Source: a virus
Reading direction: 5' to 3' (one strand)
Length of the DNA: 24,390 nt
Virus record (IMG/VR): IMGVR_UViG_3300009447_000049
Span: 1 to 24,390 of that record
Position 1 is the stretch's first letter. The number at the start of each line of letters is the position of its first letter. A program made the translations under genes and the position numbers. Below are positions 8,443 to 24,390 of the stretch, one piece after another. The notes under the pieces are model-generated. The model made no database searches. It was not told the origin of the DNA and worked only from the letters and a program-made list of their open reading frames with translations.

Positions 8443-9753
8443 ATGTCAGAAATTGACATTGAACTGCCACCTAAATTAGTTCCAATATTCCAAGGGGAGG
8501 CGAGAATACGCGCAGCCTATGGTGGAAGGGGTGGAGCCAAGAGCCGCGCTTTTGCATTAATGACTGCGGTGTGGGGCTTTAAATTTGGCATGAGTGGTCG
8601 ATCAGGTCAGATACTTTGCTTGCGCCAGTACATGAACAGCCTCAGTGAATCATCATTTGCTGAAATCAAGAACGCTATTCAAGCAGTGCCGTTTCTCAAT
8701 AATTATTATGATTGTGGCGATCATTACATACGAAGCAAAGACGGGCGTATCAGTTACTCATTTGCAGGCTTAACACGCAACATCGACAGCATTAAGTCAA
8801 AAGCCAGAATCTTGTTAGCGTTTATTGATGAAGCCGAGACAGTAAGTGAAGAGGCTTATATGAAGCTAATGCCGTCTATTCGTGAAGAGAATAGTGAGTG
8901 TTGGGTAATATGGAACCCACAATCAAAGGATTCAGCCACACACAAACGATTTAGATTAACCACGCCTGATTCCTGCAAAATTACCGCCATAAATTGGGCA
9001 GATAACCCTTGGATGCCGAAAGTGCTAACTGAGCAACGCCTAGAGGATTTAGAGCAACGCCCAGACACTTATGGTCATGTGTGGGAGGGTGACTTTTTAG
9101 AGTTCCCAGAAGGGGCTTTCTGGCTGCGAGAAATTAACAAAGCTAATGCTGATGGTCACATAGGCAGTTTACCTGTTGTTGCTTCACACCCTTGTTTAAC
9201 TTTTTGGGACATTGGGGCGTCAGATGGTTGTGCAATATGGGTAGTGCAACAAGTCGGATTAGAGTTTAGGTGTATCCAGTTTTACGAGGCATGGAATGAA
9301 CCATATAGTCATGCGGTTAAATGGTTACAAAGTTTGGACTTAGTATTTAGTGATATGTATTTGCCACACGATGCTGATCATAAGCGTCAAGGCGAACTAA
9401 AGAATAAAAGCCCAAAGGATATGCTCAAGCAATTAATGCCAAGCGCAAGCTGGCGCATAGTGCCAAGGATTCAAGACACTTTATGGGGTATACAGCAAAC
9501 CAGTGATATGTGGCCTTACATTTGGATTGATGAAGAAAAGTGTGCAAAGGGCTTAGATCATCTAAAGTCATACAGACGCAAGTGGTCAAACAGTGAGCAA
9601 CGCTGGTCGCATATACCCGATAAGTCTGAGGGCCACAGTGAAGCCGCAGACGCATTACGACAAATGGCACAAGCCTTTGCAGCAGGGGATTTGGGCCGTT
9701 CTAAGAAAAAGAATCGTGGAGCATTAAAGCGCAACGTAAAAGGTCTGGCCTAA
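8443..9753 (+). CDS. terL: Terminase large subunit (Terminase_3 type)
   Basis: The packaging motor: an N-terminal ATPase and a C-terminal nuclease that cuts concatemers. Walker A is AAYGGRGGAKS (residues about 24-34), Walker B is ILLAFIDEAE (123-132), and the coupling region is the CWVIWNPQS element near residue 155. The nuclease core has WDIGASD (D256 region), YLPHDAD (D310), and GHSEAADALRQ (D403). All expected acidic positions are present, so it should be active. Length 436 aa fits the PBSX/Sf6-like group. It lies directly behind terS with no gap. Confidence 0.95.
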   Translation: MSEIDIELPPKLVPIFQGEARIRAAYGGRGGAKSRAFALMTAVWGFKFGMSGRSGQILCLRQYMNSLSESSFAEIKNAIQAVPFLNNYYDCGDHYIRSKDGRISYSFAGLTRNIDSIKSKARILLAFIDEAETVSEEAYMKLMPSIREENSECWVIWNPQSKDSATHKRFRLTTPDSCKITAINWADNPWMPKVLTEQRLEDLEQRPDTYGHVWEGDFLEFPEGAFWLREINKANADGHIGSLPVVASHPCLTFWDIGASDGCAIWVVQQVGLEFRCIQFYEAWNEPYSHAVKWLQSLDLVFSDMYLPHDADHKRQGELKNKSPKDMLKQLMPSASWRIVPRIQDTLWGIQQTSDMWPYIWIDEEKCAKGLDHLKSYRRKWSNSEQRWSHIPDKSEGHSEAADALRQMAQAFAAGDLGRSKKKNRGALKRNVKGLA

Positions 9754-9777: not shown

Positions 9778-9786
9778 TGGTATAAT
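9778..9786 (+). promoter_or_regulatory. Extended -10 promoter before the virion block
   Basis: TGGTATAAT gives a perfect -10 box (TATAAT at 9781-9786) with the extended TGN element. The upstream -35 region is weak (an AT-rich stretch at about 9758-9763). It lies in the only sizeable gap on the plus strand after the replication genes (9754-9812) and before the micropeptide and polyvalent gene, so it likely drives transcription of this region independently of PR. A start near 9793 would leave a roughly 20-base leader. Confidence 0.7.
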
Positions 9787-9812
9787 GCACTAACAATTTT
9801 ACGGGTGCGTAC

Positions 9813-9890
9813 ATGATTACCAAAAAGCCTAAAAAGAAAGCTGTGAAAAAGCCAGCTAAAAAGCCAGCTAAGAAAGGTTATTACTCGTAA
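9813..9890 (+). CDS. Lys-rich micropeptide (25 aa)
   Basis: A 25-codon frame, MITKKPKKKAVKKPAKKPAK followed by KGYYS; about half of the residues are Lys, with a K-K-P-A-K repeat. It follows the extended -10 promoter, and its TAA overlaps the ATG of the polyvalent gene (TAATG). The tail resembles histone-H1-like or nucleoid-like C termini, so it may bind DNA or RNA. It may alternatively act mainly as a translated leader for the next gene. Too short for ordinary gene calling. Confidence 0.5.
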   Translation: MITKKPKKKAVKKPAKKPAKKGYYS

Positions 9891-11470
9891 TGGGTTTATT
9901 AAGCACCCCAATAGGTTTAGGTGTTAAGGCTGTTCGTGGCCTTATGGATATGTCTACGCCTGCAAGAATGGCTAGGGCTAAAGAGCAGGGCTTTGATACT
10001 GATACAAAGTGGTATCATGGAACTTCAGTAGATGCAGACCCGAAAACAGGACTTCCGTTTAAGGAATTTGATAGCTCTTTGCTAGGATCATCGTCTGGTG
10101 CTAAAGACACTAGGCATGGTTTTTATTTTGCTAAGAACAGAAGTACAGCAGACGCTTATAGGCCAACAAGCGAGGTAATAAATAAAAAGAAATTTGAGTC
10201 TGAATATGGACTGAGTATTGATGATGCACAGAAGCAGAAATCAAACTCAATGGACGAGTTAAGTTTCTGGGGGTTAAGTGATAAAGAAATACAGCCTTTA
10301 AGAAGCCCTAAGAATGTTGAAAAATTACCTGATTACATGAAAGATTCAGGGTGGGACTACTCAGCAACTAATAGGAAGCTAAACCCTGCAACTTACACCT
10401 CTAACAGGCAATATAGACCTTCCGAGTGGATAAGTGAAGTTAAAGAAGGTTCAAACTTCTCAGTCAACTTAAATACTTCTAACTTTAAAGAAGTTGATAT
10501 GGGCGGTAGCTCATGGGATGCGAACATACAAGATAGTATAGCTAAAGAGGCTAAACTAGATGGGTATGAAGGTGTTATATTTAAGAATATGCAAGACTCT
10601 GGATGGTTTGGCGGTTCAGGTGTTGATGATATAGCACTTGCTTTTGAAACTAAAAACATTCGCTCCCCAGACGCAGCATTTGACCCTGCCAAGATTTCAT
10701 CATCTAACCTACTAGCATCAAACCCAGTAGCTACGGCAGCAGCAGGCGCAGGCGGTTTACTAGCTGTGACGGGTAGTGAAGATGCTGATGCAGGGGTGGT
10801 TGGTAAATCATTAGATAACATTATTAAGGCTGCTAATAAACAGGGCGTAAAGCTAGACGTATTTGAAAACAAAAAGAAGGGTGGTTTAGAGTTATCTCGT
10901 ATTGTTGTTCCTGAGAAGTCAAAGGGCGTAGGCACTTCAATAATGAATGATTTAGCCGAATATGCTGATAAAACTGGGCAGACTGTTTCATTATCACCAT
11001 CGACAGATTTTGGTGGCACTTCTAAGAGGCGACTAACAGAGTTTTACAAACGCTTTGGGTTTGTTCAGAACAAAGGCAAAAATAAAGACTATACAATCTC
11101 CAATAGTATGTATAGATCACCATCAATTAAATCCTCTAACCCAGTAGCAACAACAGGCGCAGGCTTAATGGCTAACGTAACAGGCCAACCATCTAACCTA
11201 TCATCTTATATGCAGGGTAATACAGACGCTTACCTGACTAATGCAGAAAGGCAATACCTACAAAACAAGCAAGCATTTGAAAGCAATTTCTCAGACGATA
11301 CAGGGTGGGACAGAGCAGACATATTGCCATTTAGAGTTAATGAGCAAACAGGTGAACGTGAGTTTGCAACGCCCGAAATGATTAAAGGGCTTTTAAGTGG
11401 GCTTTACGACATAGGGCAGTCAAAAAACACAAAGATAAGTAACCCTGCATCATTATTGGAATTAATTTAA
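9890..11470 (+). CDS. Polyvalent protein: ADP-ribosyltransferase-like plus GNAT domains
   Basis: Residues about 40-265 look like an ART-type ADP-ribosyltransferase of polyvalent phage proteins: WYHGT (H43), GFYFA with a following A-D-A-Y (80-90), LDGYEGVIFKNM, then AFETKNIRSPDAAFDP. A hydrophobic Ala/Gly stretch follows (279-293). Residues about 320-410 resemble a GNAT acetyltransferase: LELSRIVVPEKSKGVGTSIM (K-x-x-G-x-G acetyl-CoA loop), LAEYADKTGQTVSLSP and FYKRFGFVQN. A second SNPVAT element recurs at 416-421. Proteins of this kind may be injected with phage DNA and modify host targets. The third ART catalytic residue is not certain. It has its own upstream promoter and lies between terL and the adaptor. 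Confidence 0.75.
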   Translation: MGLLSTPIGLGVKAVRGLMDMSTPARMARAKEQGFDTDTKWYHGTSVDADPKTGLPFKEFDSSLLGSSSGAKDTRHGFYFAKNRSTADAYRPTSEVINKKKFESEYGLSIDDAQKQKSNSMDELSFWGLSDKEIQPLRSPKNVEKLPDYMKDSGWDYSATNRKLNPATYTSNRQYRPSEWISEVKEGSNFSVNLNTSNFKEVDMGGSSWDANIQDSIAKEAKLDGYEGVIFKNMQDSGWFGGSGVDDIALAFETKNIRSPDAAFDPAKISSSNLLASNPVATAAAGAGGLLAVTGSEDADAGVVGKSLDNIIKAANKQGVKLDVFENKKKGGLELSRIVVPEKSKGVGTSIMNDLAEYADKTGQTVSLSPSTDFGGTSKRRLTEFYKRFGFVQNKGKNKDYTISNSMYRSPSIKSSNPVATTGAGLMANVTGQPSNLSSYMQGNTDAYLTNAERQYLQNKQAFESNFSDDTGWDRADILPFRVNEQTGEREFATPEMIKGLLSGLYDIGQSKNTKISNPASLLELI

Positions 11471-12090
11471 TGGCTATCTCAACTTACGCAGAGTTAAAAA
11501 CATCAATCGCTAATTTCTTAAATCGTGATGATCTAACGGCTACTATTCCTGATTTCATTTCGTTGGCTGAATCGTCAATCAATAATGAGATTAGACACTG
11601 GCGCATGGAGACACGCGCTGAAACAACCATTGACAGCCAGTTTACAGGCATCCCCACCGATTGGTTATCGACTATAAGATTTCACTTGGTTACGACAGGC
11701 ACAAGCAGTTTAGATTTTATGTCGCTGGCTACTATGCAAGCAAGCCGAGCAGCGCGTAACAACTCCACAGGTACACCAACCAACTACAGCCTTAACTCGT
11801 CACAATTTGAGGTATTTCCAACGCCTGATGGTTCGTACAGCGCGATACTGATGTATTACGCCAAGATACCCACACTTTCTGATTCAGCAACCACTAACTG
11901 GTTGTTAACCCATCACCCCGATATTTATTTGTATGGTGCTTTGCTGCATAGCGCACCTTACTTAAAAGAAGATGAAAGAGCCTCAACATGGGCTGCTCTT
12001 TATTCTGCTGCTGTGGCTAGAGTTAATACCGCAAGCAGTCGATCAACCGCGAGTGGCTCTGGCCTACGCTTGAAAATAGGTGCTTATTAA
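11470..12090 (+). CDS. Head-tail adaptor, SU10-type
   Basis: Begins MAISTYAELKTSIANFLNRD and continues LTATIPDFISLAESSINNEI, with a conserved R-H-W-R-M-E-T motif. This is the start of the small phage adaptor proteins known from phiSU10-like podoviruses, which sit between portal and tail. A central strand-rich part (residues 60-140, with SLDFMSLATMQ and YYAKIPTLS) and a helical C terminus (LYGALLHSAPYLKEDER) complete the family pattern. Length 206 aa is as expected. It overlaps both neighbours by TAATG. The family name is from memory. Confidence 0.75.
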   Translation: MAISTYAELKTSIANFLNRDDLTATIPDFISLAESSINNEIRHWRMETRAETTIDSQFTGIPTDWLSTIRFHLVTTGTSSLDFMSLATMQASRAARNNSTGTPTNYSLNSSQFEVFPTPDGSYSAILMYYAKIPTLSDSATTNWLLTHHPDIYLYGALLHSAPYLKEDERASTWAALYSAAVARVNTASSRSTASGSGLRLKIGAY

Positions 12091-12990: not shown

Positions 12991-14688
12991 ATGGCAGATA
13001 CAACCACACCCAACTACGGCCTAACTAAACCAGAAGTTGGTGCTTCCGAGGATACTTGGGGTACGAAAATCAACACCAACTTAAATCTTATTGATACTCA
13101 GATGAAGGTGTCTGATGATCGTAGTGCTACTAACACAACGACTGCCAACGCTGCATTAGCCCGTTCTGGCGGCACTATGACAGGCAATCTAGCCACAGCA
13201 GGTATCAGCGCAGTCACAGCAGGTACAAGTAACTTTGTTGCAGGTGTTAACGCTGGTAATAGCATTGTGTCTGGTGGTAACTATAATACTGTCGTTGGTG
13301 ATGAAGCTGGTACTGCTATTACTACGGGGGATAACAATACAGCAGTTGGTTATAAAGCATTAGATACTGGAACTGGAACTGGAAACACAGCTATTGGTTC
13401 TGCTGCTTTAGATGCCCAAACTACAGCAAATTTTAATACAGCAGTAGGAAGTAATGCTGGAGCAGCCAATACAACAGGTGGTGAATTAGTTGCTGTAGGT
13501 AGAAATGCTTTACAAGCTAACACTACAGGAACAGCTAACACTGCGGTAGGTATGAGGGCGTTAGACGCAAATACCACAGCAGGTTACAACACTGCGGTTG
13601 GTGGAGATGCTTTAGGTGCTAACACTACAGGTGAACGCAATACTGCTATTGGTTATAGTGCTTTAGTGAGAAACACTACAGGTGGTTACAATTCTGCTAC
13701 AGGTATGTATGCCCTGCAATACAACACCACAGGTGCTAACAATGTTGCTTCTGGTTACTATTCTTTAGCGTCTAACACTACAGGTGGTGACAACACTGCT
13801 TCTGGGTACGATTCTCTAGGTGATAACACCACAGGTTCTTTCAATGCTGGTTTTGGATATGAGGCTTTGGCTCGTAACACTACGGCAAGTAATAACACTG
13901 CTATGGGTTATAGAGCTTTAAAGGTTAACACTGAAGGCGCATACAACTCTGCTTTTGGTCATGATGCTTTAGACGCTAACACTACAGGCTCATTTAACAC
14001 TGCTACAGGTAGAGCAACATTAGGTACTAACACCACAGGCCAGTTTAATTCTGCATCAGGCTATGTATCTCTATTAAATAATACTACGGGTCAGAAAAAC
14101 ACTGGTAGTGGCGCTTATACTGGCGCTAATCTTACAACAGGTATTGAGAATACGTTTATAGGTTATAACGCTGGTGGCACACGAACAACAGGTAGCAATA
14201 ACGTTTGTATTGGATACAATGCAGGGCATGACGGAACAAGTTCTAGCGATTTGTTATTTATAGCACGAAATAACACTGGCCCCTCTAACGCTGCGACTTG
14301 GATTTTTGGGGATTCTGCAGGTGCTTGTAGGCAAGGTAACAACGCAACCACATGGACACAAACCTCTGATGAAAGAATTAAGAAAAACATTGTTGATAGT
14401 CCAAATGGTTTAGCAAAGATTGATGCCCTTCAAGTTCGTAACTTTAATTACAGGACAGAAGAAGAAATAACTGTTGAAGGATTAACGGGGTGTGATGCTA
14501 CAGGATTACAAGTTGGAGTTATAGCGCAGGAAATAGAAGCAGTATTACCAGAGGCAGTGACAGAAAGTGATAGTGGGCAAAAGCAAGTACAGACTGACCC
14601 AATATTTTGGTCAATGGTCAAAGCAATCCAAGAATTATCAACCCAAAACGCAGCACTTGAAGCACGTTTAACAGCACTAGAGGCATAA
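12991..14688 (+). CDS. Tail fibre with 17-residue repeats and S74 chaperone
   Basis: The N terminus ([20 protein letters not shown], then [15 protein letters not shown]) is the common phage fibre attachment start. Residues about 100-412 are repeats of N-T-T-G-x-x-N-T-A-x-G-Y-x-A-L-x-x, with an exact 17-residue period from residue 160 to 381. The C-terminal part is an intramolecular chaperone (Peptidase_S74, endosialidase type): [10 protein letters not shown] with Ser459 and Lys464/465 as the probable Ser-Lys cleavage pair, and [19 protein letters not shown]. The final helix is a coiled coil. Such chaperones trimerise the fibre and then cut themselves off. It probably binds the host surface. 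AGGAAAG lies upstream of the ATG. Confidence 0.88.
13288..14226 (+). repeat. 51-bp tandem repeats in fibre gene
   Basis: About 18 units encoding the N-T-T-G-x-x-N-[TS]-A-x-G-Y-x-[AS]-L pattern. The period is exactly 51 bases over most of the array (about 13470-14140); the first units are 16-18 residues long. Units share ACTACAGG-like and AACACTGC-like cores. The protein repeats resemble the left-handed beta-roll repeats of bacterial trimeric adhesin heads. Length change by recombination is plausible. Confidence 0.75.
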
Positions 14689-17111: not shown

Positions 17112-17464
17112 ACGAGTTAGACAGATGCAGAAAATGGATAGAGGATGCGCTTGAATATTCGGGCGGCACACACACTTTTGAAGATGTTAAAAATGGTATA
17201 ATTGAGGGCAAATCACAGCTATGGCCTGCGGCTAATTCTTGTCTAGTTACAGAGATTACGCGGTTCCCTCAAAAGAAGGTTTTACACGTTTTTTTAGGCG
17301 GTGGTAATTTAGAAGAAATTAAGGGTATGCAGCCAGATTTAATCAGTTGGGCAAAGGCCCAAGAGTGTGAAAGTTTGACAATGAGCGGTCGCAAAGGCTG
17401 GTCAAAAGCATTGGCAGACATTGGTTGGAAATCCCAATTAGTGCTATTAGAAAAGAGGTTTTAG
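17108..17464 (+). CDS. GNAT-like protein among virion genes (118 aa)
   Basis: Residues 13-55 (DALEYSGGTHTFEDVKNGII, then Q-L-W and VTEITRFP), 58-81 (VLHVFLGGGNLEEIKGMQPD) and 84-108 (AQECESLTMSGRKGWSKALA, then D-I-G-W) follow the pattern of a short phage protein often linked to GNAT acetyltransferases: a Q-L-W segment, a beta strand ending in G-G-x-L-x-x-I, and an S-G-R-x-G-W turn. The canonical R-x-x-G-x-G loop is not present, so enzyme activity is unsure. The start at 17108 is preferred because it overlaps the upstream stop (ATGA). Confidence 0.55.
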   Translation: MNELDRCRKWIEDALEYSGGTHTFEDVKNGIIEGKSQLWPAANSCLVTEITRFPQKKVLHVFLGGGNLEEIKGMQPDLISWAKAQECESLTMSGRKGWSKALADIGWKSQLVLLEKRF

Positions 17465-17466
17465 GT

Positions 17467-18546
17467 ATGTCAAAAGGCGGCACAACATCAGGCAGCACAG
17501 AAATTCCAGCATGGTTGGAAAATGCAGCGATTGAAAACATCAACAAAGCGCGTGACGTATCTCAAATTGGCTATGTGCCTTATTACGGGCCTGATGTAGC
17601 AGCTTTCTCACCTATGCAGCAACAGTCTATGCAATCTACGGGTAACGCTGCTAGTGCCTTTGGATTGGCCCCACAAGGCTTTAATGCTATGGCTGGTATG
17701 CCACAAGCAGAAACCTTTGCAGGCGGCTTACAGGGCTATTCTAGTGCGCCTTTGTATGAGCAGTCATTGGATAACCTGTTTGCTAATGCGCCAGCCCAAT
17801 ATCGCGCCATGAGTGATATGTTCATCGACCCATTCACAGGGTCAGCACCAAGAAGCGGATATGGTGCTACACCTATGCAAACTGGGCAGATGATTTCTGG
17901 TGGTGGCGGTGGCGGTGGTGAAACTCCATTCCAATTCCCACAAGATCAAACAAGTGATGCTGAAATATTTGGTGTTAACCGAGCGTATAACCCTTACAAA
18001 TACTCAATGCCAACGGAAGATATTAGCGGTGATGGTGTTGTTGATTACCGAGATATGAGTTTTGGTGAAGGTGGTCGCAGAGATGTGCCAATGGGCGAAA
18101 GGATTGTTAACGGGTTATTGGGTGGCCCATTAAGAGCAGTGGATTTTGTGCAAGGCTCATTGTTTGATATGTCTGGTGCTGGCGACCCATCAATGTCTCA
18201 GGCCGAGTCAGTCAGTCAAATGAATGAAGCAAATGCTCGTTACGCAGCCAGAATGGAAGCAGATCGCGTGCAATCCGCAGCAAAGGTGCAAGCCGCTATG
18301 CAGGCAGAGGCAGACTATAATCAAGAAATGGAACGACAAGCCAGCTTGCTAGAAGATCTTAGACTAAGCGCAGTAACAACGCCTTATCGTGCGCCAGCAG
18401 TAATCACTCAAAGCACAGTTAACCGAGGCGGTGGCGGCAACCCAAACAAGGGCAATAATGCTGCTGGAGGAACGGGCGGTAATGTTCGCAGTTCAAGTGG
18501 TGTGGGCGGCTACCAAGGCATGAGTACGGGTGAAGCTGGTCGTTAA
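17467..18546 (+). CDS. Virion/ejected protein with EF-hand-like loop (359 aa)
   Basis: The N terminus (STEIPAWLENAAIENINKAR, then QIGYVPYYGPDVAAFSPMQQ) is familiar from internal virion proteins of podovirus-like genomes. A seven-Gly run sits near residue 147. Residues 185-196 (DISGDGVVDYRD) match a dockerin- or EF-hand-type calcium loop with D185, S187, D189, D193 and D196 at ligand positions. The C terminus has a coiled-coil, Gln/Ala-rich helix (about 250-300) and a Gly/Asn-rich tail. The ATG at 17467 is chosen since AGAGG lies upstream; the frame is open further into the previous gene. Proposed role: internal or ejected protein. Confidence 0.6.
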   Translation: MSKGGTTSGSTEIPAWLENAAIENINKARDVSQIGYVPYYGPDVAAFSPMQQQSMQSTGNAASAFGLAPQGFNAMAGMPQAETFAGGLQGYSSAPLYEQSLDNLFANAPAQYRAMSDMFIDPFTGSAPRSGYGATPMQTGQMISGGGGGGGETPFQFPQDQTSDAEIFGVNRAYNPYKYSMPTEDISGDGVVDYRDMSFGEGGRRDVPMGERIVNGLLGGPLRAVDFVQGSLFDMSGAGDPSMSQAESVSQMNEANARYAARMEADRVQSAAKVQAAMQAEADYNQEMERQASLLEDLRLSAVTTPYRAPAVITQSTVNRGGGGNPNKGNNAAGGTGGNVRSSSGVGGYQGMSTGEAGR

Positions 18547-18581
18547 GCACTACTAATATTTAAGATATAAGGAACAACATT

Positions 18582-19334
18582 ATGGCAGGCTCACCAACAG
18601 GCGGTTTTAACGTCAATCAAGCAGCAGCAGGCGGCATACAACAGGCAGGAATGGGTGCATCACAAGGCATGAATTATCGGCCTATGGCAATTACTGCGCC
18701 AACGCAAGATAGTTTGCAGCAGTACACTAATCCGTATGAGACACAGGTTGTGAACCAATCTCTTGCTGATTTAGAACGAAGCCGTCTTATGGCTCAGAAC
18801 GTAGGTGGCGCACAAGCAAGCGCAGCTAACGCATTTGGTGGTTCACGACAGGGCATTGCAGAAGCAGAAACCAATCGGGCCTTTGCAGATCAAGCAGCCC
18901 GTACAGCGTCAGGATTGCGGCAGACAGGCTACCAGAACGCACAGACAATGGAACGCCAAGCGCAAATGCAAAACCAGCAGGCAGGCTTATCGGGCGCACA
19001 ACAGCGTTTAAATGCAGGCCAACAGTTGGGCAGTTTGGCTAATCTAGGCTTTGGCATGGGTCAGACTATTCAAAATCGTATGGATCAACAAGGCGCAATG
19101 CAGCAAGCATTGAATCAACAGCTTATTAACGCAGGCAAGAATCAATACGCTGGCTACACTGGCGCACCAGCACAGTCATTGCAGTATTTGTTGCAGGCAG
19201 TCGGTGGCGCACCAGCACAACAGCAGCAGACAGAGACTTATGACGCAGGATTGTTTGATTATCTGACGTTAGGTGCAAAAGCATACGCTTCTAACCCTGC
19301 CAAAATAGGAAGTATGTTCGGATTTGGAGGTTAA
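18582..19334 (+). CDS. Gln-rich internal virion/ejected protein (250 aa)
   Basis: The central region (residues about 45-175) is one long Ala/Gln-rich helix with a heptad-like character, containing YTNPYETQVVNQSLADLERS and FGGSRQGIAEAETNRAFADQ. This pattern recurs in podovirus genomes next to portal and large ejected-protein genes. It has no membrane segment except a weak C-terminal Gly/Phe end. AAGGAAC precedes the ATG. It is probably packed in the head and released with DNA into the host envelope. Confidence 0.6.
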   Translation: MAGSPTGGFNVNQAAAGGIQQAGMGASQGMNYRPMAITAPTQDSLQQYTNPYETQVVNQSLADLERSRLMAQNVGGAQASAANAFGGSRQGIAEAETNRAFADQAARTASGLRQTGYQNAQTMERQAQMQNQQAGLSGAQQRLNAGQQLGSLANLGFGMGQTIQNRMDQQGAMQQALNQQLINAGKNQYAGYTGAPAQSLQYLLQAVGGAPAQQQQTETYDAGLFDYLTLGAKAYASNPAKIGSMFGFGG

Positions 19335-19335
19335 G

Positions 19336-20427
19336 ATGGGCTTATTAGACAATATTAAAGGTGGGCCTTCACCCAGTATGTCAAACAATGACAGAAGCGC
19401 ATTAGCTTTGGGCTTGGCTTCTGGTTTTGCAGGCATGAGTGGCAATCCCAACACAGCTAGTATTATGGCTGGCATTGAAGGTCAGCAGGCGTCTTTAGCG
19501 GCTAGGCGTGAAAAGGAAGAAGCTACAAAACTTCTTTCAAGCCAATCTAACGCTACTTTAATGCAGTTAAAGGCTGGCGGTGTGCCAGATGAAGTATTGG
19601 CTGTGGCTAGAACTAATCCAGAATTACTTAAAACCATTACAGGTGAGTTTGTAAAGTCTAAGTATGGCAAGAGTGATATGTTGAAGTTTACTGGTGTACA
19701 GACTGACCCAAAAACGGGCCAACAGTATACTATTATGTCAAATCCAAATGATGGGACTTCTACTAGGATAGACGTTGCTGGTGCTATAGGGCAAACCCCA
19801 ACACAAACACTTGAAATTGAGAATGCAGCTACTACTAGGCTTGCAGACATAGCAATGGCCCAGAAGAAAGGTTTTGCTGCTTTTGATCGTGCTAGTGCTA
19901 TGGATGAATCACTAGTTAAGTTAGAGTCAGCCAGAGAAGCGGTTAAGAATGGAGCCTCATCTGGATTTTTAGCAAGGTTTGTACCATCGTTTAGTGCAGC
20001 AACAACATCTTTAAGAAATACAGCCAACTCGCTTGGTATAGACATTATTAATAGTGCCACTTTTGGCGCGTTAAGCGAGAAGGAACTACAGTTAGCGTTA
20101 AGCACTGGATTAGATTTAAGTTTACAAGGTGAAGAATTAAACAAACATATTTTAGAAAAAATAGCAGCGCAAACAAAGATGCGTGATTGGCTAATTTCAC
20201 AATCTAAAATCCTAACTAAAGGTGATGTAACTTACTCTAGTTACATACAAAAATATAACGCAGAAAAGCCTAGAGCAAATCCTATTGTAAATTACGCTTC
20301 TCCACAAAACGCTGGCAGTGGTGCTACTGGTACTGGTGGGTTAGTTTTGTCTAAAAAACAAATTGATATAATGACTCCAAAGCAAAAAGCTGCATTTGAG
20401 CAATTAACTGGCGTTAAGCTACCGTAG
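19336..20427 (+). CDS. Internal virion/ejected protein (363 aa)
   Basis: Begins MGLLDNIKGGPSPSMSNNDR, then SALALGLASGFAGMSGNPNT, a glycine-rich hydrophobic stretch, followed by a long charged helical region (residues 50-90) and a second helix-rich part (190-330). GGAGGT directly before the ATG at 19336 decides the start over an in-frame ATG four codons upstream. The middle stretch ITGEFVKSKYGKSDMLKFTG, T-D-P-K-T-G-Q-Q-Y is a recurrent beta-hairpin-like element in phage internal proteins. No enzymatic motif is seen. Confidence 0.6.
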   Translation: MGLLDNIKGGPSPSMSNNDRSALALGLASGFAGMSGNPNTASIMAGIEGQQASLAARREKEEATKLLSSQSNATLMQLKAGGVPDEVLAVARTNPELLKTITGEFVKSKYGKSDMLKFTGVQTDPKTGQQYTIMSNPNDGTSTRIDVAGAIGQTPTQTLEIENAATTRLADIAMAQKKGFAAFDRASAMDESLVKLESAREAVKNGASSGFLARFVPSFSAATTSLRNTANSLGIDIINSATFGALSEKELQLALSTGLDLSLQGEELNKHILEKIAAQTKMRDWLISQSKILTKGDVTYSSYIQKYNAEKPRANPIVNYASPQNAGSGATGTGGLVLSKKQIDIMTPKQKAAFEQLTGVKLP

Positions 20428-20440
20428 TTAGGGAATATTT

Positions 20441-22354
20441 ATGGCATTAACAGATGAGCAGTTTGAGCAATTATTAGGTCAATTAGACGAGATTCAGCCA
20501 GACGATCAGGTTGCAAGATTAATAGCACAGGGCGCGTCATTAGGCTTTAGTGATGAAATTGAAGCTCTAGCTCGCGCACCATTCCAAAGTGAAAGTTACA
20601 TTGAAATACGCGATGAATTGCGTAGGAAAATAAACGCGCACAGAGAACGTAGCCCGTATCAAGCTATGGCTTATGAGGCAGCAGGGGCAATGATACCTAC
20701 TGTTGCCACAATGGGAGTCTCTTCACCAGTATCAGTTGTTAATGCCGCTAGGCCAGTAGTAAGGGCTTTGCAACTTGGCGCAGCAGAGGGCGGTGCTGCT
20801 GCTGTTGGTTTAAGTGAGCGTGAAGGTGTTGCAAGTCTAAAAGATGCCCCATTAGGGGTTGCTCTTGGTGCTGGCGGTGGTGTAGGAGGATTATACGCTG
20901 GTAAGTTTATGGGCGGTGTTGCAGATAAATTTTTAGAGTTTGTGCGCCAGCGTGGTAAAGGTCGAATGGGTACAGTTGTTGAAAATGAACTAAACCGCCT
21001 AGCAGATCAGACAGGAATGTCGCGTGACGAACTTTTTGAAAGAATAGCTAATGGCGAAACAATGTCAGACAATCAAAGCCTGCACAGCACAGTAAGGTCT
21101 TATATGTCTCAAGGTGGGCCACCAGAGTCTATGATAAGAACTGCTGTTCCAGAAAGGGCAACCGCAGCTAGATTAGCAGCTAAAGAAGATGTTCAAATTG
21201 GTCTAACTGGCGGCACAGAGGGTAACGTACTTAAATACGCCAATATGAAGGAAACTGATTGGAAAAAAGCATTAGGTGATGCTTACAATAAAGTATTCTC
21301 TAAAGCTGGTGAAGTAAATACTGATTTGACTAGGCAGGCTTTAGAAGTAGTTCAGCGCGTACCAGAAGCACTAACTGAGTTAAATAAAATTTACAATGTG
21401 CGTAACTTAGTGCCATTGTTTAAGACTGCTGATAATGGTGCTTTAGAAATGTCTCGTATTCCTACGTTAGAAGATGTAGAAATAATTAGACGTATGGCAA
21501 ATGAGCAGGCGCAAGTTGCTGGTCGTGAAGGCCGAGGCACATTGAAGTCTGAACTTATGGTGCTAGAAGATAATCTAAGAACCAACATTGATGAATTTAG
21601 CCCAGAGTTAAAAGATACTCGCGCAGGTTGGTCAAGAATGGCTGATGCTAGGGATGCTTTTGATAGTGGCAAGAAAGCATTTACAGGTGATGTTGAAGCG
21701 TTTGAAATTCTTGCAGAGCAAATAATGGCTTCTGGTGATACCGCTAAAATTAGTGCGTTTCGTGAAGGTATAATGTCTAGCATTAACAACAAAATGTCTA
21801 CTAATGGCTCTAAGCGTTTCTTAGCTAAACTGGCTAACCCAGAATTACGTGAGGGTAAAGTATTTGCTAACGTATTCCCAGAAGATAAACAAAAGTCTGC
21901 ACTTGTTAAATTAGCATTACAAGGTAAGACCCAGTTATCTTATGAAAAGATTATTGAAGGCCCAAGTACGGCATTAACTGATGCAGCAACTAAGCAGCAG
22001 GGATTGGGTGTTGGTGCAGATGAATTACTAGCTATGTCTTATGGAAACGTAGCTGCTGGTATTGGTGTGGGTATGAAAGCTATTAAAGCCCTTGCTCCCA
22101 AACTAACTGACAGCCAACGCAGGCAGATAACAGAAGTTCTTTTAAGTGAAGATCCACAGTTTGTTAAGTCGGCACTGGCCGATAGTGGTAAAATGGCTCA
22201 ACTACAAAATAGAGTTAAAAAATTGGCTGATATGATTACTACTGGAAGTCAAAGTGCTGGCGGCTATACAGGCGGCAAGGCTGCTGAGTTTGGCATGAGA
22301 GGCTTGCTTAGTGAAGTACAACCAGAAAGTACAACGCAACAAGGTGCAATGTAA
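20441..22354 (+). CDS. Large ejected/internal virion protein (637 aa)
   Basis: Starts MALTDEQFEQLLGQLDEIQP; residues about 30-45 read GASLGFSDEIEALARA, then a SPYQAMAYEAAGAM segment and two glycine-rich hydrophobic stretches (about 80-115 and 135-160) that could insert in membranes. G-x-[SA]-x-G-F-x-D-E-[IA] followed by E-A-x-G-A is familiar from large proteins ejected by podoviruses to form a channel, equivalent in role to P22 gp16. The rest is helix-rich and charged. The next gene, portal, overlaps its stop (TAATG). No protease motif is seen. Confidence 0.7.
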   Translation: MALTDEQFEQLLGQLDEIQPDDQVARLIAQGASLGFSDEIEALARAPFQSESYIEIRDELRRKINAHRERSPYQAMAYEAAGAMIPTVATMGVSSPVSVVNAARPVVRALQLGAAEGGAAAVGLSEREGVASLKDAPLGVALGAGGGVGGLYAGKFMGGVADKFLEFVRQRGKGRMGTVVENELNRLADQTGMSRDELFERIANGETMSDNQSLHSTVRSYMSQGGPPESMIRTAVPERATAARLAAKEDVQIGLTGGTEGNVLKYANMKETDWKKALGDAYNKVFSKAGEVNTDLTRQALEVVQRVPEALTELNKIYNVRNLVPLFKTADNGALEMSRIPTLEDVEIIRRMANEQAQVAGREGRGTLKSELMVLEDNLRTNIDEFSPELKDTRAGWSRMADARDAFDSGKKAFTGDVEAFEILAEQIMASGDTAKISAFREGIMSSINNKMSTNGSKRFLAKLANPELREGKVFANVFPEDKQKSALVKLALQGKTQLSYEKIIEGPSTALTDAATKQQGLGVGADELLAMSYGNVAAGIGVGMKAIKALAPKLTDSQRRQITEVLLSEDPQFVKSALADSGKMAQLQNRVKKLADMITTGSQSAGGYTGGKAAEFGMRGLLSEVQPESTTQQGAM

Positions 22355-24390
22355 TGCCTAAAATGTCACAACAAGATATTCAAAGTGCAATTAAAACCGC
22401 TATTCAGTCAGCCATTGATTACGTTGACAGCGACATAGCAGATCAACGAGAACGAGCTCAAAGCTACTTTGACGGAAATGTTGACTTAGAGCATGAAGAG
22501 GGTCGTTCTAGGGTAGTGTCTACTAAAGTGCGTGATGTGGTGCGTGGTGCTAAACCTAGCCTAATGCGTATCTTTATGAGCAATAATAAGTTTGTGGAAT
22601 TTACGCCCAAAGGCCCAGAAGATGTGGCTAATGCAGAACAAGCGACAGCCTACACGCATTGGGTGTTTAACAAAGTAGGTGGCTATAACGTCTTATCTAA
22701 TGCAATCCATGATTCATTAGTGAAGAAAGTCGGCATTGTGAAAGTCTGGTGGAACCAAGAAACAATCGCTAAAACGTACACTTATGAAAACTTGTCAGAT
22801 CAAGAAGTACAGGTATTGGTCAACAAAGAAGGTGTTGAAGTTGTAGAACATCGACAAGAAATAGAAATGGAAATGGACGAGTTCGGCTTAGATGTTGAAC
22901 GCAATGTTCACAGTATGGTTATTACGCACAAGTATGAAGAGGGCGAAATGGTCATTGAGGGGATTCCCCCAGAAGAGTTTTTCATTGATGGTTCGGCTAA
23001 GTCGATTGATGATGCGTATATTTGCTGCCACAGAAGCGAGAAACGCGCAGGCGATTTAGTGGCTATGGGTATTGATCAAGACGTTGTTGATAACCTAAAC
23101 GGCTCAGACAATGATTCATTGATTGGTAATATTGAAAAAATACAGCGTTTTGGCGAGTCTATTACAGACGATGAAGATGTAGACAATGACCCATCAATGC
23201 GCCAAGTTTTAGTCACAGAGGCTTATCTACGCATTGACGCAGAAGGTGACGGCATACCCACTTTGCACAAGTTCTTATGTGGCGGCACTGATTACGAAGT
23301 GCTTGAGATGGAGCCGTGGGATAAAGCCCCGTTTGCTGATTTCCACGTTGACCCAGAACCCCACGCTTTTTATGGTCGCTCACTGGCTGAGTTAGTGATT
23401 AACGATCAAGATACAACCACTAGCGTACTGCGTGGAATATTGGATAACGTAGCGTTAGTAAACACCCCACGTTTAGAGGTCAATGAAGATTTGGTGGAAA
23501 TGGACGATGTGCTGAATAACGAGATCGGTGCAATCATTCGCAGTGAGCAAATAGGGTCGATTAACCCATTAACAGTGCCTTTTGTAGCAGGTTCCACACT
23601 GCCAGCATTGCAATATCTTGACATGCTGGTTGAAGAGAAAACAGGCATTAGTAAAATGAGCATGGGCCTTAACCCCGATATGTTGCAGAACACCTCTGCC
23701 ACCGCAGCCGCATTGACCGCACAAGCTGGCGCAGGCCAAGTTGAAGTCATGGCTAGAAACCTCGCAGAAGGCACTAAGCGGTTATTTCAACTAATGCTAC
23801 ACGTTGCCGTTAAAAACTCGCCAGACGAGCAAATGATGCGCCTCAATGGACAGTTTGTACCTGTTGACCCTGCCATTTGGGATAGCTCAATGGACATGGA
23901 AATTAATGTCGGGTTAGGCACAGGGCAAGAAGATGCCAAGGCCGCAGCACTGATGCAGACTTTCCAAACTCAGCAGCAAATTTGGCAGACCTACGGGCCT
24001 CAGAATGGCTTAGTTTCAATGACACAAATGCGTAACACTTTATCAGATACTTTGGCATTAAGTGGGTTCAATGACGCTGATCGTTATTACGCGCCTATGA
24101 ACCCAGAAAGTGAGGCTCAGTTAATGGCTCAAATGGCAGAGCAAGCCGCACAAGCAGCACAGGGTCAGCAGGGCGACCCAATGGCACAGGCACTTATTGA
24201 GGCTGAACAGATCAAGGCTCAAGCTAAGATGCAGGGCGACCAGATGAAGATGCAAGGGAAAATGCAGGGCGATCAAATTAAGATGCAAGCTGATATGCAA
24301 GTAAAAGCCGCACAAATGCAATCTAAGCAGGGCCAAGAACTGGCTGAATTGCAGCTTAAATATCGTGAATTGCAGGCCAGTGATGATTTA
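22354..24390 (+). CDS. Portal protein, C terminus cut by window edge
   Basis: The frame runs from an ATG overlapping the previous stop (TAATG) to the right edge with no stop, so at least 679 residues exist. The N terminus has YFDGNVDLEHEEGRSRVVST then KVRDVVRGAKPSLMRIFMSN, followed by VEFTPKGPEDVANAEQATAY and KKVGIVKVWWNQE. These are hallmarks of P22-family portal proteins of podovirus-like genomes. The region near residues 540-560 is the usual portal core. The C terminus is a long Met/Gln/Lys-rich coiled coil that would form the portal barrel. The portal is the head vertex ring through which DNA passes. Confidence 0.88.
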   Translation, partial: MPKMSQQDIQSAIKTAIQSAIDYVDSDIADQRERAQSYFDGNVDLEHEEGRSRVVSTKVRDVVRGAKPSLMRIFMSNNKFVEFTPKGPEDVANAEQATAYTHWVFNKVGGYNVLSNAIHDSLVKKVGIVKVWWNQETIAKTYTYENLSDQEVQVLVNKEGVEVVEHRQEIEMEMDEFGLDVERNVHSMVITHKYEEGEMVIEGIPPEEFFIDGSAKSIDDAYICCHRSEKRAGDLVAMGIDQDVVDNLNGSDNDSLIGNIEKIQRFGESITDDEDVDNDPSMRQVLVTEAYLRIDAEGDGIPTLHKFLCGGTDYEVLEMEPWDKAPFADFHVDPEPHAFYGRSLAELVINDQDTTTSVLRGILDNVALVNTPRLEVNEDLVEMDDVLNNEIGAIIRSEQIGSINPLTVPFVAGSTLPALQYLDMLVEEKTGISKMSMGLNPDMLQNTSATAAALTAQAGAGQVEVMARNLAEGTKRLFQLMLHVAVKNSPDEQMMRLNGQFVPVDPAIWDSSMDMEINVGLGTGQEDAKAAALMQTFQTQQQIWQTYGPQNGLVSMTQMRNTLSDTLALSGFNDADRYYAPMNPESEAQLMAQMAEQAAQAAQGQQGDPMAQALIEAEQIKAQAKMQGDQMKMQGKMQGDQIKMQADMQVKAAQMQSKQGQELAELQLKYRELQASDDL

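What the first reader, a model, noticed from the sequence alone, without database searches (positions are those of the whole stretch)
9890..11470. ART-GNAT polyvalent protein between terminase and structural genes
One 526-residue protein appears to join an ADP-ribosyltransferase-like module (WYHGT, GFYFA, NIRSPDAAFDP) and a GNAT-like acetyltransferase module (VVPEKSKGVGTS, FYKRFGFV) around an Ala/Gly hydrophobic segment. Two group-transfer activities in one virion-linked protein suggest an injected effector acting on host transcription, translation or defence. The combination is not one I can name as described.
Basis: partly seen in the sequence, partly recalled or inferred. Interest (0 to 1): 0.75.

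Follow-up and report, generated by a model that had tools for sequence, protein, structure and literature searches.

The report
Phage effector built from swappable modules
A marine bacterial virus carries, next to its DNA-packaging gene, a protein joining an ADP-ribosyltransferase-like and an acetyltransferase-like enzyme; that pairing was already described in 2017, but close relatives carry different enzyme modules in the same slot, exchanged at short repeated linkers.

Summary
ORF 9890-11470 (526 aa) has an ADP-ribosyltransferase (ART) module (about 35-270; H43-Y79-I248, PARP10-like) and a minimal GNAT module (about 309-412), separated by an Ala/Gly linker. The GNAT fold is secure; its best structural match is the anti-CRISPR acetyltransferase AcrVA5 (Z 10.3, 93 of 95 residues). 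The ART fold is supported by profiles and motifs, but its model is of low confidence.

The novelty claim fails: Iyer et al. 2017 (PMC5512222) describe a GNAT family in phage polyvalent proteins that typically neighbours an ART in the same polypeptide; I find 17 such proteins among 55 non-redundant GNAT proteins.

More interesting is the locus. In about 20 related viral contigs this ORF lies between terminase and adaptor genes. It keeps an N-anchor, a C-anchor and a repeated linker, while the modules between are swapped: ART subtypes, a second GNAT, PBECR5 RNase, ParB-C-like. Relative L006 lacks the GNAT cassette: its sequence equals our linker for 51 nt, then our C-anchor (1 mismatch in 350 nt), switching at a shared repeat.

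Best reading: a modular polyvalent effector, probably injected, modifying host proteins to blunt defence. Packaging, activity and targets are inferred, not shown.

The parts
9890..11470 (+). 526-aa modular polyvalent effector (N-anchor, ART, linker, GNAT, C-anchor)
9890..10051 (+). N-anchor, residues 1-54 (MGLLSTP...RGLMDMSTPARMARAKEQGFDTD), conserved in orthologues and recurring before internal ART modules of L009, L019, L104
9992..10699 (+). ART-like module, residues 35-270; putative NAD-site motifs WYHGT (H43), GFYFA (Y79) and DDIALAF (I248 at the usual Glu position)
10685..10819 (+). linker, residues 266-310 (FDPAKISSSNLLASNPVATAAAGAGGLLAVTGSEDADAGVVGKS); shared by relatives and repeated between modules
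10718..10747 (+). direct repeat, copy 1 (5' edge of the GNAT cassette)
11135..11164 (+). direct repeat, copy 2 (3' edge of the GNAT cassette), 417 nt from copy 1, in frame
10814..11125 (+). minimal GNAT module, residues 309-412; acetyl-CoA loop KSKGVG (G346, G348), FYKRFGF (Y386), NKGKNKD...MYR
11105..11467 (+). C-anchor, residues 406-526, found only in this viral clade; no confident fold
9778..9800 (+). conserved promoter-like block: extended -10 TGGTATAAT followed by GCACTAACAATTTT
9813..9890 (+). 25-aa Lys-rich peptide ORF (MITKKPKKKAVKKPAKKPAKKGYYS); its stop overlaps the effector start (TAATG)
8443..9753 (+). terminase large subunit (upstream neighbour in all contigs that reach it)
11470..12090 (+). 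SU10-type adaptor / head-tail connector (downstream neighbour)

Best explanation
The ORF is a small, modular polyvalent effector of a temperate podovirus-like marine phage. Conserved N- and C-terminal anchors (presumably for folding, packaging or delivery) hold one to several exchangeable enzyme modules joined by a repeated Ala/Gly linker; the copy here holds a PARP-like mono-ADP-ribosyltransferase and an AcrVA5-sized GNAT. The protein is made with the packaging genes, enters the particle and goes into the cell with the DNA, where the ART puts ADP-ribose and the GNAT puts acetyl on host proteins (defence, transcription or translation factors) early in infection. Modules are gained and lost by recombination between the short in-frame linker repeats, plausibly helped by the phage's own Erf/NinB/NinG recombination genes, so each lineage fits its effector to its hosts. 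Shown: the anatomy, the GNAT fold, the module swapping, the repeat-bounded natural junction, the fixed position. Supported but not proved: the ART fold and catalytic residues. Inferred: packaging, injection, activities, targets.
For: ART and GNAT assignment. Fixed slot between TerL and adaptor across about 20 contigs. Relatives with TerL and adaptor of 97-99% identity share only the anchors and linker of the effector (L018 against L104: 44/51% of the effector alike, only at residues 1-48, 224-286 and 434-573 of L018; null 0%). Other modules in the same slot: ART-PolyVal (E 6e-26, 8e-25), PBECR5 RNase (E 2e-21), Acetyltransf_CG-like GNAT, ParB-C-like (E 1e-36). Order reversed (GNAT-linker-ART) in L012. 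Natural crossover in L006: equal to window linker 10670-10728, then equal to the C-anchor with 1 mismatch in 350 nt. Erf annealase, SSB, NinB, NinG in the window. Isolated relative OANV2 has a TAATG-coupled basic small ORF and an ART protein (gp6) in the same slot. Precedent for packaged ARTs near terminase/portal genes: PMC9503650, PMC5512222.
Against: No proteomics or assay for this virus or its near relatives; the OANV2 paper has none. The ART model is weak and the ART lacks the usual third Glu. A conserved promoter-like element fits separate expression as well. The C-anchor resembles no known packaging domain. Recombination through the phage's own enzymes is not shown; only the products of recombination are seen.
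Confidence: 0.55

Rival explanations
1. An accessory ('moron'-type) gene expressed from its own promoter in the lysogen or early in infection; it never enters the particle and serves to protect the lysogen, for example by superinfection exclusion or by damping host defence.
For: Exact conservation of TATAATGCACTAACAATTTT upstream of the effector in loci of several lineages; a CI-type repressor shows a temperate lifestyle; the slot content is variable as for accessory genes.
Against: Strict location inside the packaging/neck gene block; the two small basic ORFs are TAATG-coupled to it; related domains elsewhere lie in ejection-protein-like positions and ART genes are often virion-linked. An extended -10 alone occurs by chance (3 seen, 1.4 expected).
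Confidence: 0.25
2. A phage-borne polymorphic toxin, like MuF toxins, whose variable modules poison host or competitor bacteria and require an immunity gene.
For: Variable modules on fixed ends, next to packaging genes, in a temperate phage, as in MuF toxins (PMC5576092); PBECR5 RNase-type modules.
Against: No MuF domain in the Pfam scan; modules are swapped inside the protein, not only at the C-terminus; no immunity gene travels with the module: the ORF is followed at once by the adaptor gene in all contigs.
Confidence: 0.1
3. A mainly structural neck/packaging protein in which the enzyme-like folds are degenerate and do not catalyse.
For: The ART lacks the third-motif Glu (I248); position beside terminase and adaptor; Lys in place of the usual Arg/Gln in the GNAT loop.
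Against: GNAT loop glycines, Tyr386 and Arg381 are invariant in 28 relatives and selection is purifying; H-Y-I is the triad of active mono-ARTs such as PARP10 (own knowledge); whole modules differ between near relatives, unlike a structural protein.
Confidence: 0.1

Closest known systems
Polyvalent proteins of phages and conjugative elements (Iyer et al. 2017, PMC5512222), especially the ART + GNAT family-1 architectures
   Same: Two or more effector domains in one polypeptide, ART next to GNAT, phage packaging/structural context, mosaic module content
   Different: Much shorter than most; fixed clade-specific ends, a repeated linker at the module borders and a traced natural junction are not described there (the H. 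pylori jhp1044 mosaicism is the nearest case)
AcrVA5 anti-CRISPR acetyltransferase (PDB 6iuf)
   Same: Minimal GNAT of about 95 residues lacking the usual N-terminal part; best structural match (Z 10.3, 93 of 95 aligned)
   Different: No significant sequence similarity (E 0.4-0.8); here one module of a larger protein; target unknown
PARP10/PARP12-type mono-ADP-ribosyltransferases; ART-PolyVal (PF18760)
   Same: YHGT ... GxYFA ... hydrophobic residue at the usual Glu position (H-Y-I)
   Different: Long helical insertion between motifs 2 and 3; below the Pfam gathering score; activity untested
MuF polymorphic toxins of temperate phages (Jamet et al. 2017, PMC5576092)
   Same: Variable effector domains on a fixed part, in the packaging module of temperate phages
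   Different: No MuF domain, internal rather than C-terminal variation, no immunity gene, not Firmicutes-type phage
T4 Alt
   Same: ART proposed to be injected with phage DNA
   Different: No sequence relation found; packaging is proved only for Alt (PMC5512222)

Membership tests
Polyvalent proteins (Iyer 2017) | two or more distinct effector domains in one polypeptide | tested here: met
   ART-like and GNAT modules in one ORF; 1-4 modules in orthologues
Polyvalent proteins (Iyer 2017) | encoded by a phage in packaging/structural context | tested here: met
   between TerL and adaptor in the window and its relatives
Polyvalent proteins (Iyer 2017) | transferred into the host with the DNA | not testable with these tools
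   needs virion proteomics and a translocation assay
GNAT superfamily | beta4-loop-alpha3 acetyl-CoA motif and GNAT fold | tested here: met
   invariant G346-x-G348 and Y386 in 28 relatives; structural neighbours are GNATs, AcrVA5 Z 10.3
GNAT superfamily | acetyl/acyl transfer | not testable with these tools
   no assay
Iyer GNAT family 1 | ART neighbour in the same polypeptide; gammaproteobacterial and uncultured marine phages, solo forms in Firmicutes/Actinobacteria | tested here: met
   searches agree with the described context; the paper's own sequences were not compared
ART superfamily / PF18760 | Pfam gathering score | tested here: not met
   21.3 against 31.2 bits; other modules of the same slot pass it
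ART superfamily / PF18760 | ART fold | tested here: inconclusive
   all structural rows are ART-fold but Z 6.7-7.3 and pLDDT 63; sequence-profile hits are all ART-fold
ART superfamily / PF18760 | H-Y-[E/Q/D or hydrophobic] triad | tested here: met
   H43, Y79, I248 as in mono-ART PARPs; the Glu variant is absent
AcrVA5 anti-CRISPR family | minimal GNAT fold | tested here: met
AcrVA5 anti-CRISPR family | detectable sequence relation | tested here: inconclusive
   E 0.83 and 0.4 by profile
AcrVA5 anti-CRISPR family | acetylates and blocks Cas12a | not testable with these tools
   needs an assay as in PMC9114340 or PMC10799925
MuF polymorphic toxins | N-terminal MuF domain | tested here: not met
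   no MuF match in the Pfam scans

The most novel reading that the evidence does not exclude
The terminase-adaptor interval of this marine phage clade is a dedicated effector-building slot: in-frame module cassettes flanked by a conserved linker repeat are inserted, deleted and reordered by short-homology recombination with phage-encoded annealing proteins, giving each virion its own set of injected ART, GNAT and RNase activities, one of which (the AcrVA5-like GNAT) disables a host defence protein.
Probability: 0.3. Interest if true: 0.7.

Novelty: new variant of a known kind. Interest (0 to 1): 0.47.

Why it matters
ART + GNAT in one phage protein is known, so the headline is not new. What is useful is a compact, well-bounded system (one gene, 353-987 aa, fixed ends, traced exchange junction) in which near-identical phages differ almost only in their effector modules. 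That makes the open question of what polyvalent effectors do, and how they are assembled, testable by comparing modules in one background, and it names an isolated phage (OANV2, gp6) with an ART protein in the same slot.

Tried and rejected
Novelty of ART + GNAT: rejected by PMC5512222 and by 17 other fusions. Host: two scans of genome collections with the C-anchor and the GNAT gave no prophage (none; one distant Neobacillus locus); nearest isolated relatives by TerL and portal infect Paracoccus, Sulfitobacter and Octadecabacter at 40-48% identity, so the host stays unknown. Sigma-70 scan with -35: nothing above chance. Rfam: no match. NCBIfam: no match for this protein. Foldseek on the ART model: no match with E below 0.35, hence the reliance on profiles and motifs. 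A first BLASTP-based coverage table understated shared anchors because long low-identity alignments swallowed them; replaced by ungapped windows. Full-length alignment A4 misaligned ART fragments and was not used for folding. MuF toxin and purely structural readings: see rivals.

Full report
Observation. The window is a 24,390-bp IMG/VR virus record. ORF 9890-11470 (+) encodes 526 residues exactly as described. Pfam gives ART-PolyVal at 41-91 (E 4.8e-4, below its gathering score) and GNAT at 344-392 (E 0.05); PHROG 10691, a 3,925-position polyvalent-type family, matches 295-429 at 5e-33.

GNAT half. A scan of viral contigs with a four-sequence alignment found 144 relatives (80 kept). In 28 aligned members the residues P341, G346, G348, A359, D360, P370, G375, R381, L382, F385-F391, N394, G396, M407 and R409 are invariant; G346-x-G348 is the acetyl-CoA pyrophosphate loop and Y386 is at the place of the usual general acid (established knowledge of GNATs). 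The AlphaFold model has block pLDDT of about 84-96 over the domain. Foldseek finds Naa50 and GCN5 (E about 1e-3); VIA-align puts AcrVA5 first (Z 10.3, 3.1 A, 93 of 95 residues), ahead of the next at 8.9. AcrVA5 is a 92-residue-class GNAT that acetylates Cas12a (PMC9114340), and a structure-based relative without sequence similarity was shown to inhibit Cas12a too (PMC10799925). The likeness here is of fold and size; sequence relation is not established (E 0.4-0.8), and GNATs of this fold have many targets.

ART half. Motifs WYHGT (H43), GFYFA (Y79) and DDIALAF (I248 at the place of the catalytic Glu) match the PARP10 type H-Y-I arrangement (own knowledge). Third-motif residues vary among the modules of this slot and other phage ARTs (I, V, N, H, T, E). 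Profile search against PDB sequences returns ART-fold enzymes only (32 of 32 up to E 1). The model is weak (mean pLDDT 63); VIA-align rows are all ART-fold (NatT, MbcT, ParT, PARPs; Z 6.7-7.3), a range where chance matches occur, so I call the ART fold probable rather than shown.

The combination is known. Iyer et al. 2017 write that one GNAT family of polyvalent proteins, seen in gammaproteobacterial (pro)phages and an uncultured Mediterranean phage, typically has an ART as neighbour in the same polypeptide. My own survey agrees: 17 of 55 non-redundant GNAT proteins hold an ART, before it in 9 and after it in 8 (Pfam support).

A slot with swapped modules. Orthologous contigs all have TerL - effector - adaptor where both sides are present. 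The shared parts of the effector are residues 1-54, 248-310 and 406-526 of the window protein. The rest changes: L014 ART only (353 aa), L009 ART-linker-ART, L018 ART-linker-ART, L012 GNAT-linker-ART, L013 PBECR5 RNase-linker-ART, L007 a different GNAT, a ParB-C-like part and an ART (987 aa), L019 an unknown domain and an ART. L018 and L104 have TerL 97% and adaptor 99% identical, yet share only the anchors and linker of the effector. The linker (SNLLASNPVATAAAGAGGLLAxTGSEDxxAGVV) recurs between modules.

How exchange happens. In the window the start of the linker and the start of the C-anchor form a 30-nt direct repeat (80%), 417 nt apart, which is 139 codons, so loss or gain of the unit keeps the frame. 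The natural contig L006 shows that state: 51 nt exactly equal to the window linker, the shared octamer AACCCAGT, then the window C-anchor with 1 mismatch in 350 nt, whereas its match to the linker breaks down right of the octamer and its match to the C-anchor breaks down left of it. Left of the 51 nt the two phages carry different modules. This is a recombination junction at the repeat. The window also encodes an Erf-type annealing protein, SSB, NinB and NinG; that these do it is inference.

Context and expression. The virus has a CI-type repressor, O-like replication protein, TerS/TerL, adaptor, S74-type fibre and, at the far end, the portal (22354-24390). Upstream of the effector lie an extended -10 block conserved letter for letter in several relatives and a 25-residue Lys-rich ORF whose stop overlaps the effector start. 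The isolated podovirus OANV2 (Octadecabacter Antarctic DB virus 2) has the same gene order, a basic small ORF coupled by TAATG, and an ART-containing gp6 in this slot; its paper reports no virion proteomics.

Mechanism. Most likely a virion-delivered, modular protein-modifying effector (confidence 0.55 for the whole chain; about 0.9 for anatomy, 0.85 for module exchange at linkers, 0.5 for packaging, 0.4 for counter-defence as the purpose). Rivals are listed with their tests.

Noticed in passing
9778-9800: Promoter-like block TGGTATAATGCACTAACAATTTT between terminase and effector, exact in relatives of several lineages.
   Followed up: partly
9813-9890: 25-aa Lys/Pro/Ala-rich, histone-tail-like peptide ORF coupled to the effector by TAATG; relatives carry a second small basic ORF (MAKGVKHYLKNG...) that the window lacks; OANV2 gp5 is similar in kind.
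   Followed up: partly
L019:1405-3561: N-terminal module with HDFQGH motif, matching PHROG 3170 of unknown function, another occupant of the slot.
   Followed up: no
L105, L106, L107: A more distant branch of the slot with a different C-anchor start (GIGQEAQGLAAHAQGNTDAYLT) and modules that match no Pfam family.
   Followed up: no
17425-22354: Four consecutive proteins (373, 250, 367, 637 aa) before the portal, Ala/Gln/Gly-rich, probably ejection or internal virion proteins; two have no PHROG match.
   Followed up: no
12991-14685: Fibre with many TAVG/TTG-type repeats and a C-terminal S74 chaperone domain; its middle is exchanged in relatives while the first ~68 residues stay.
   Followed up: no
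L121:4630-10575 and L122:6060-13604: The same GNAT family sits in 1,981- and 2,514-residue proteins beside a transglycosylase or tailspike gene, a position usual for ejection proteins.
   Followed up: partly
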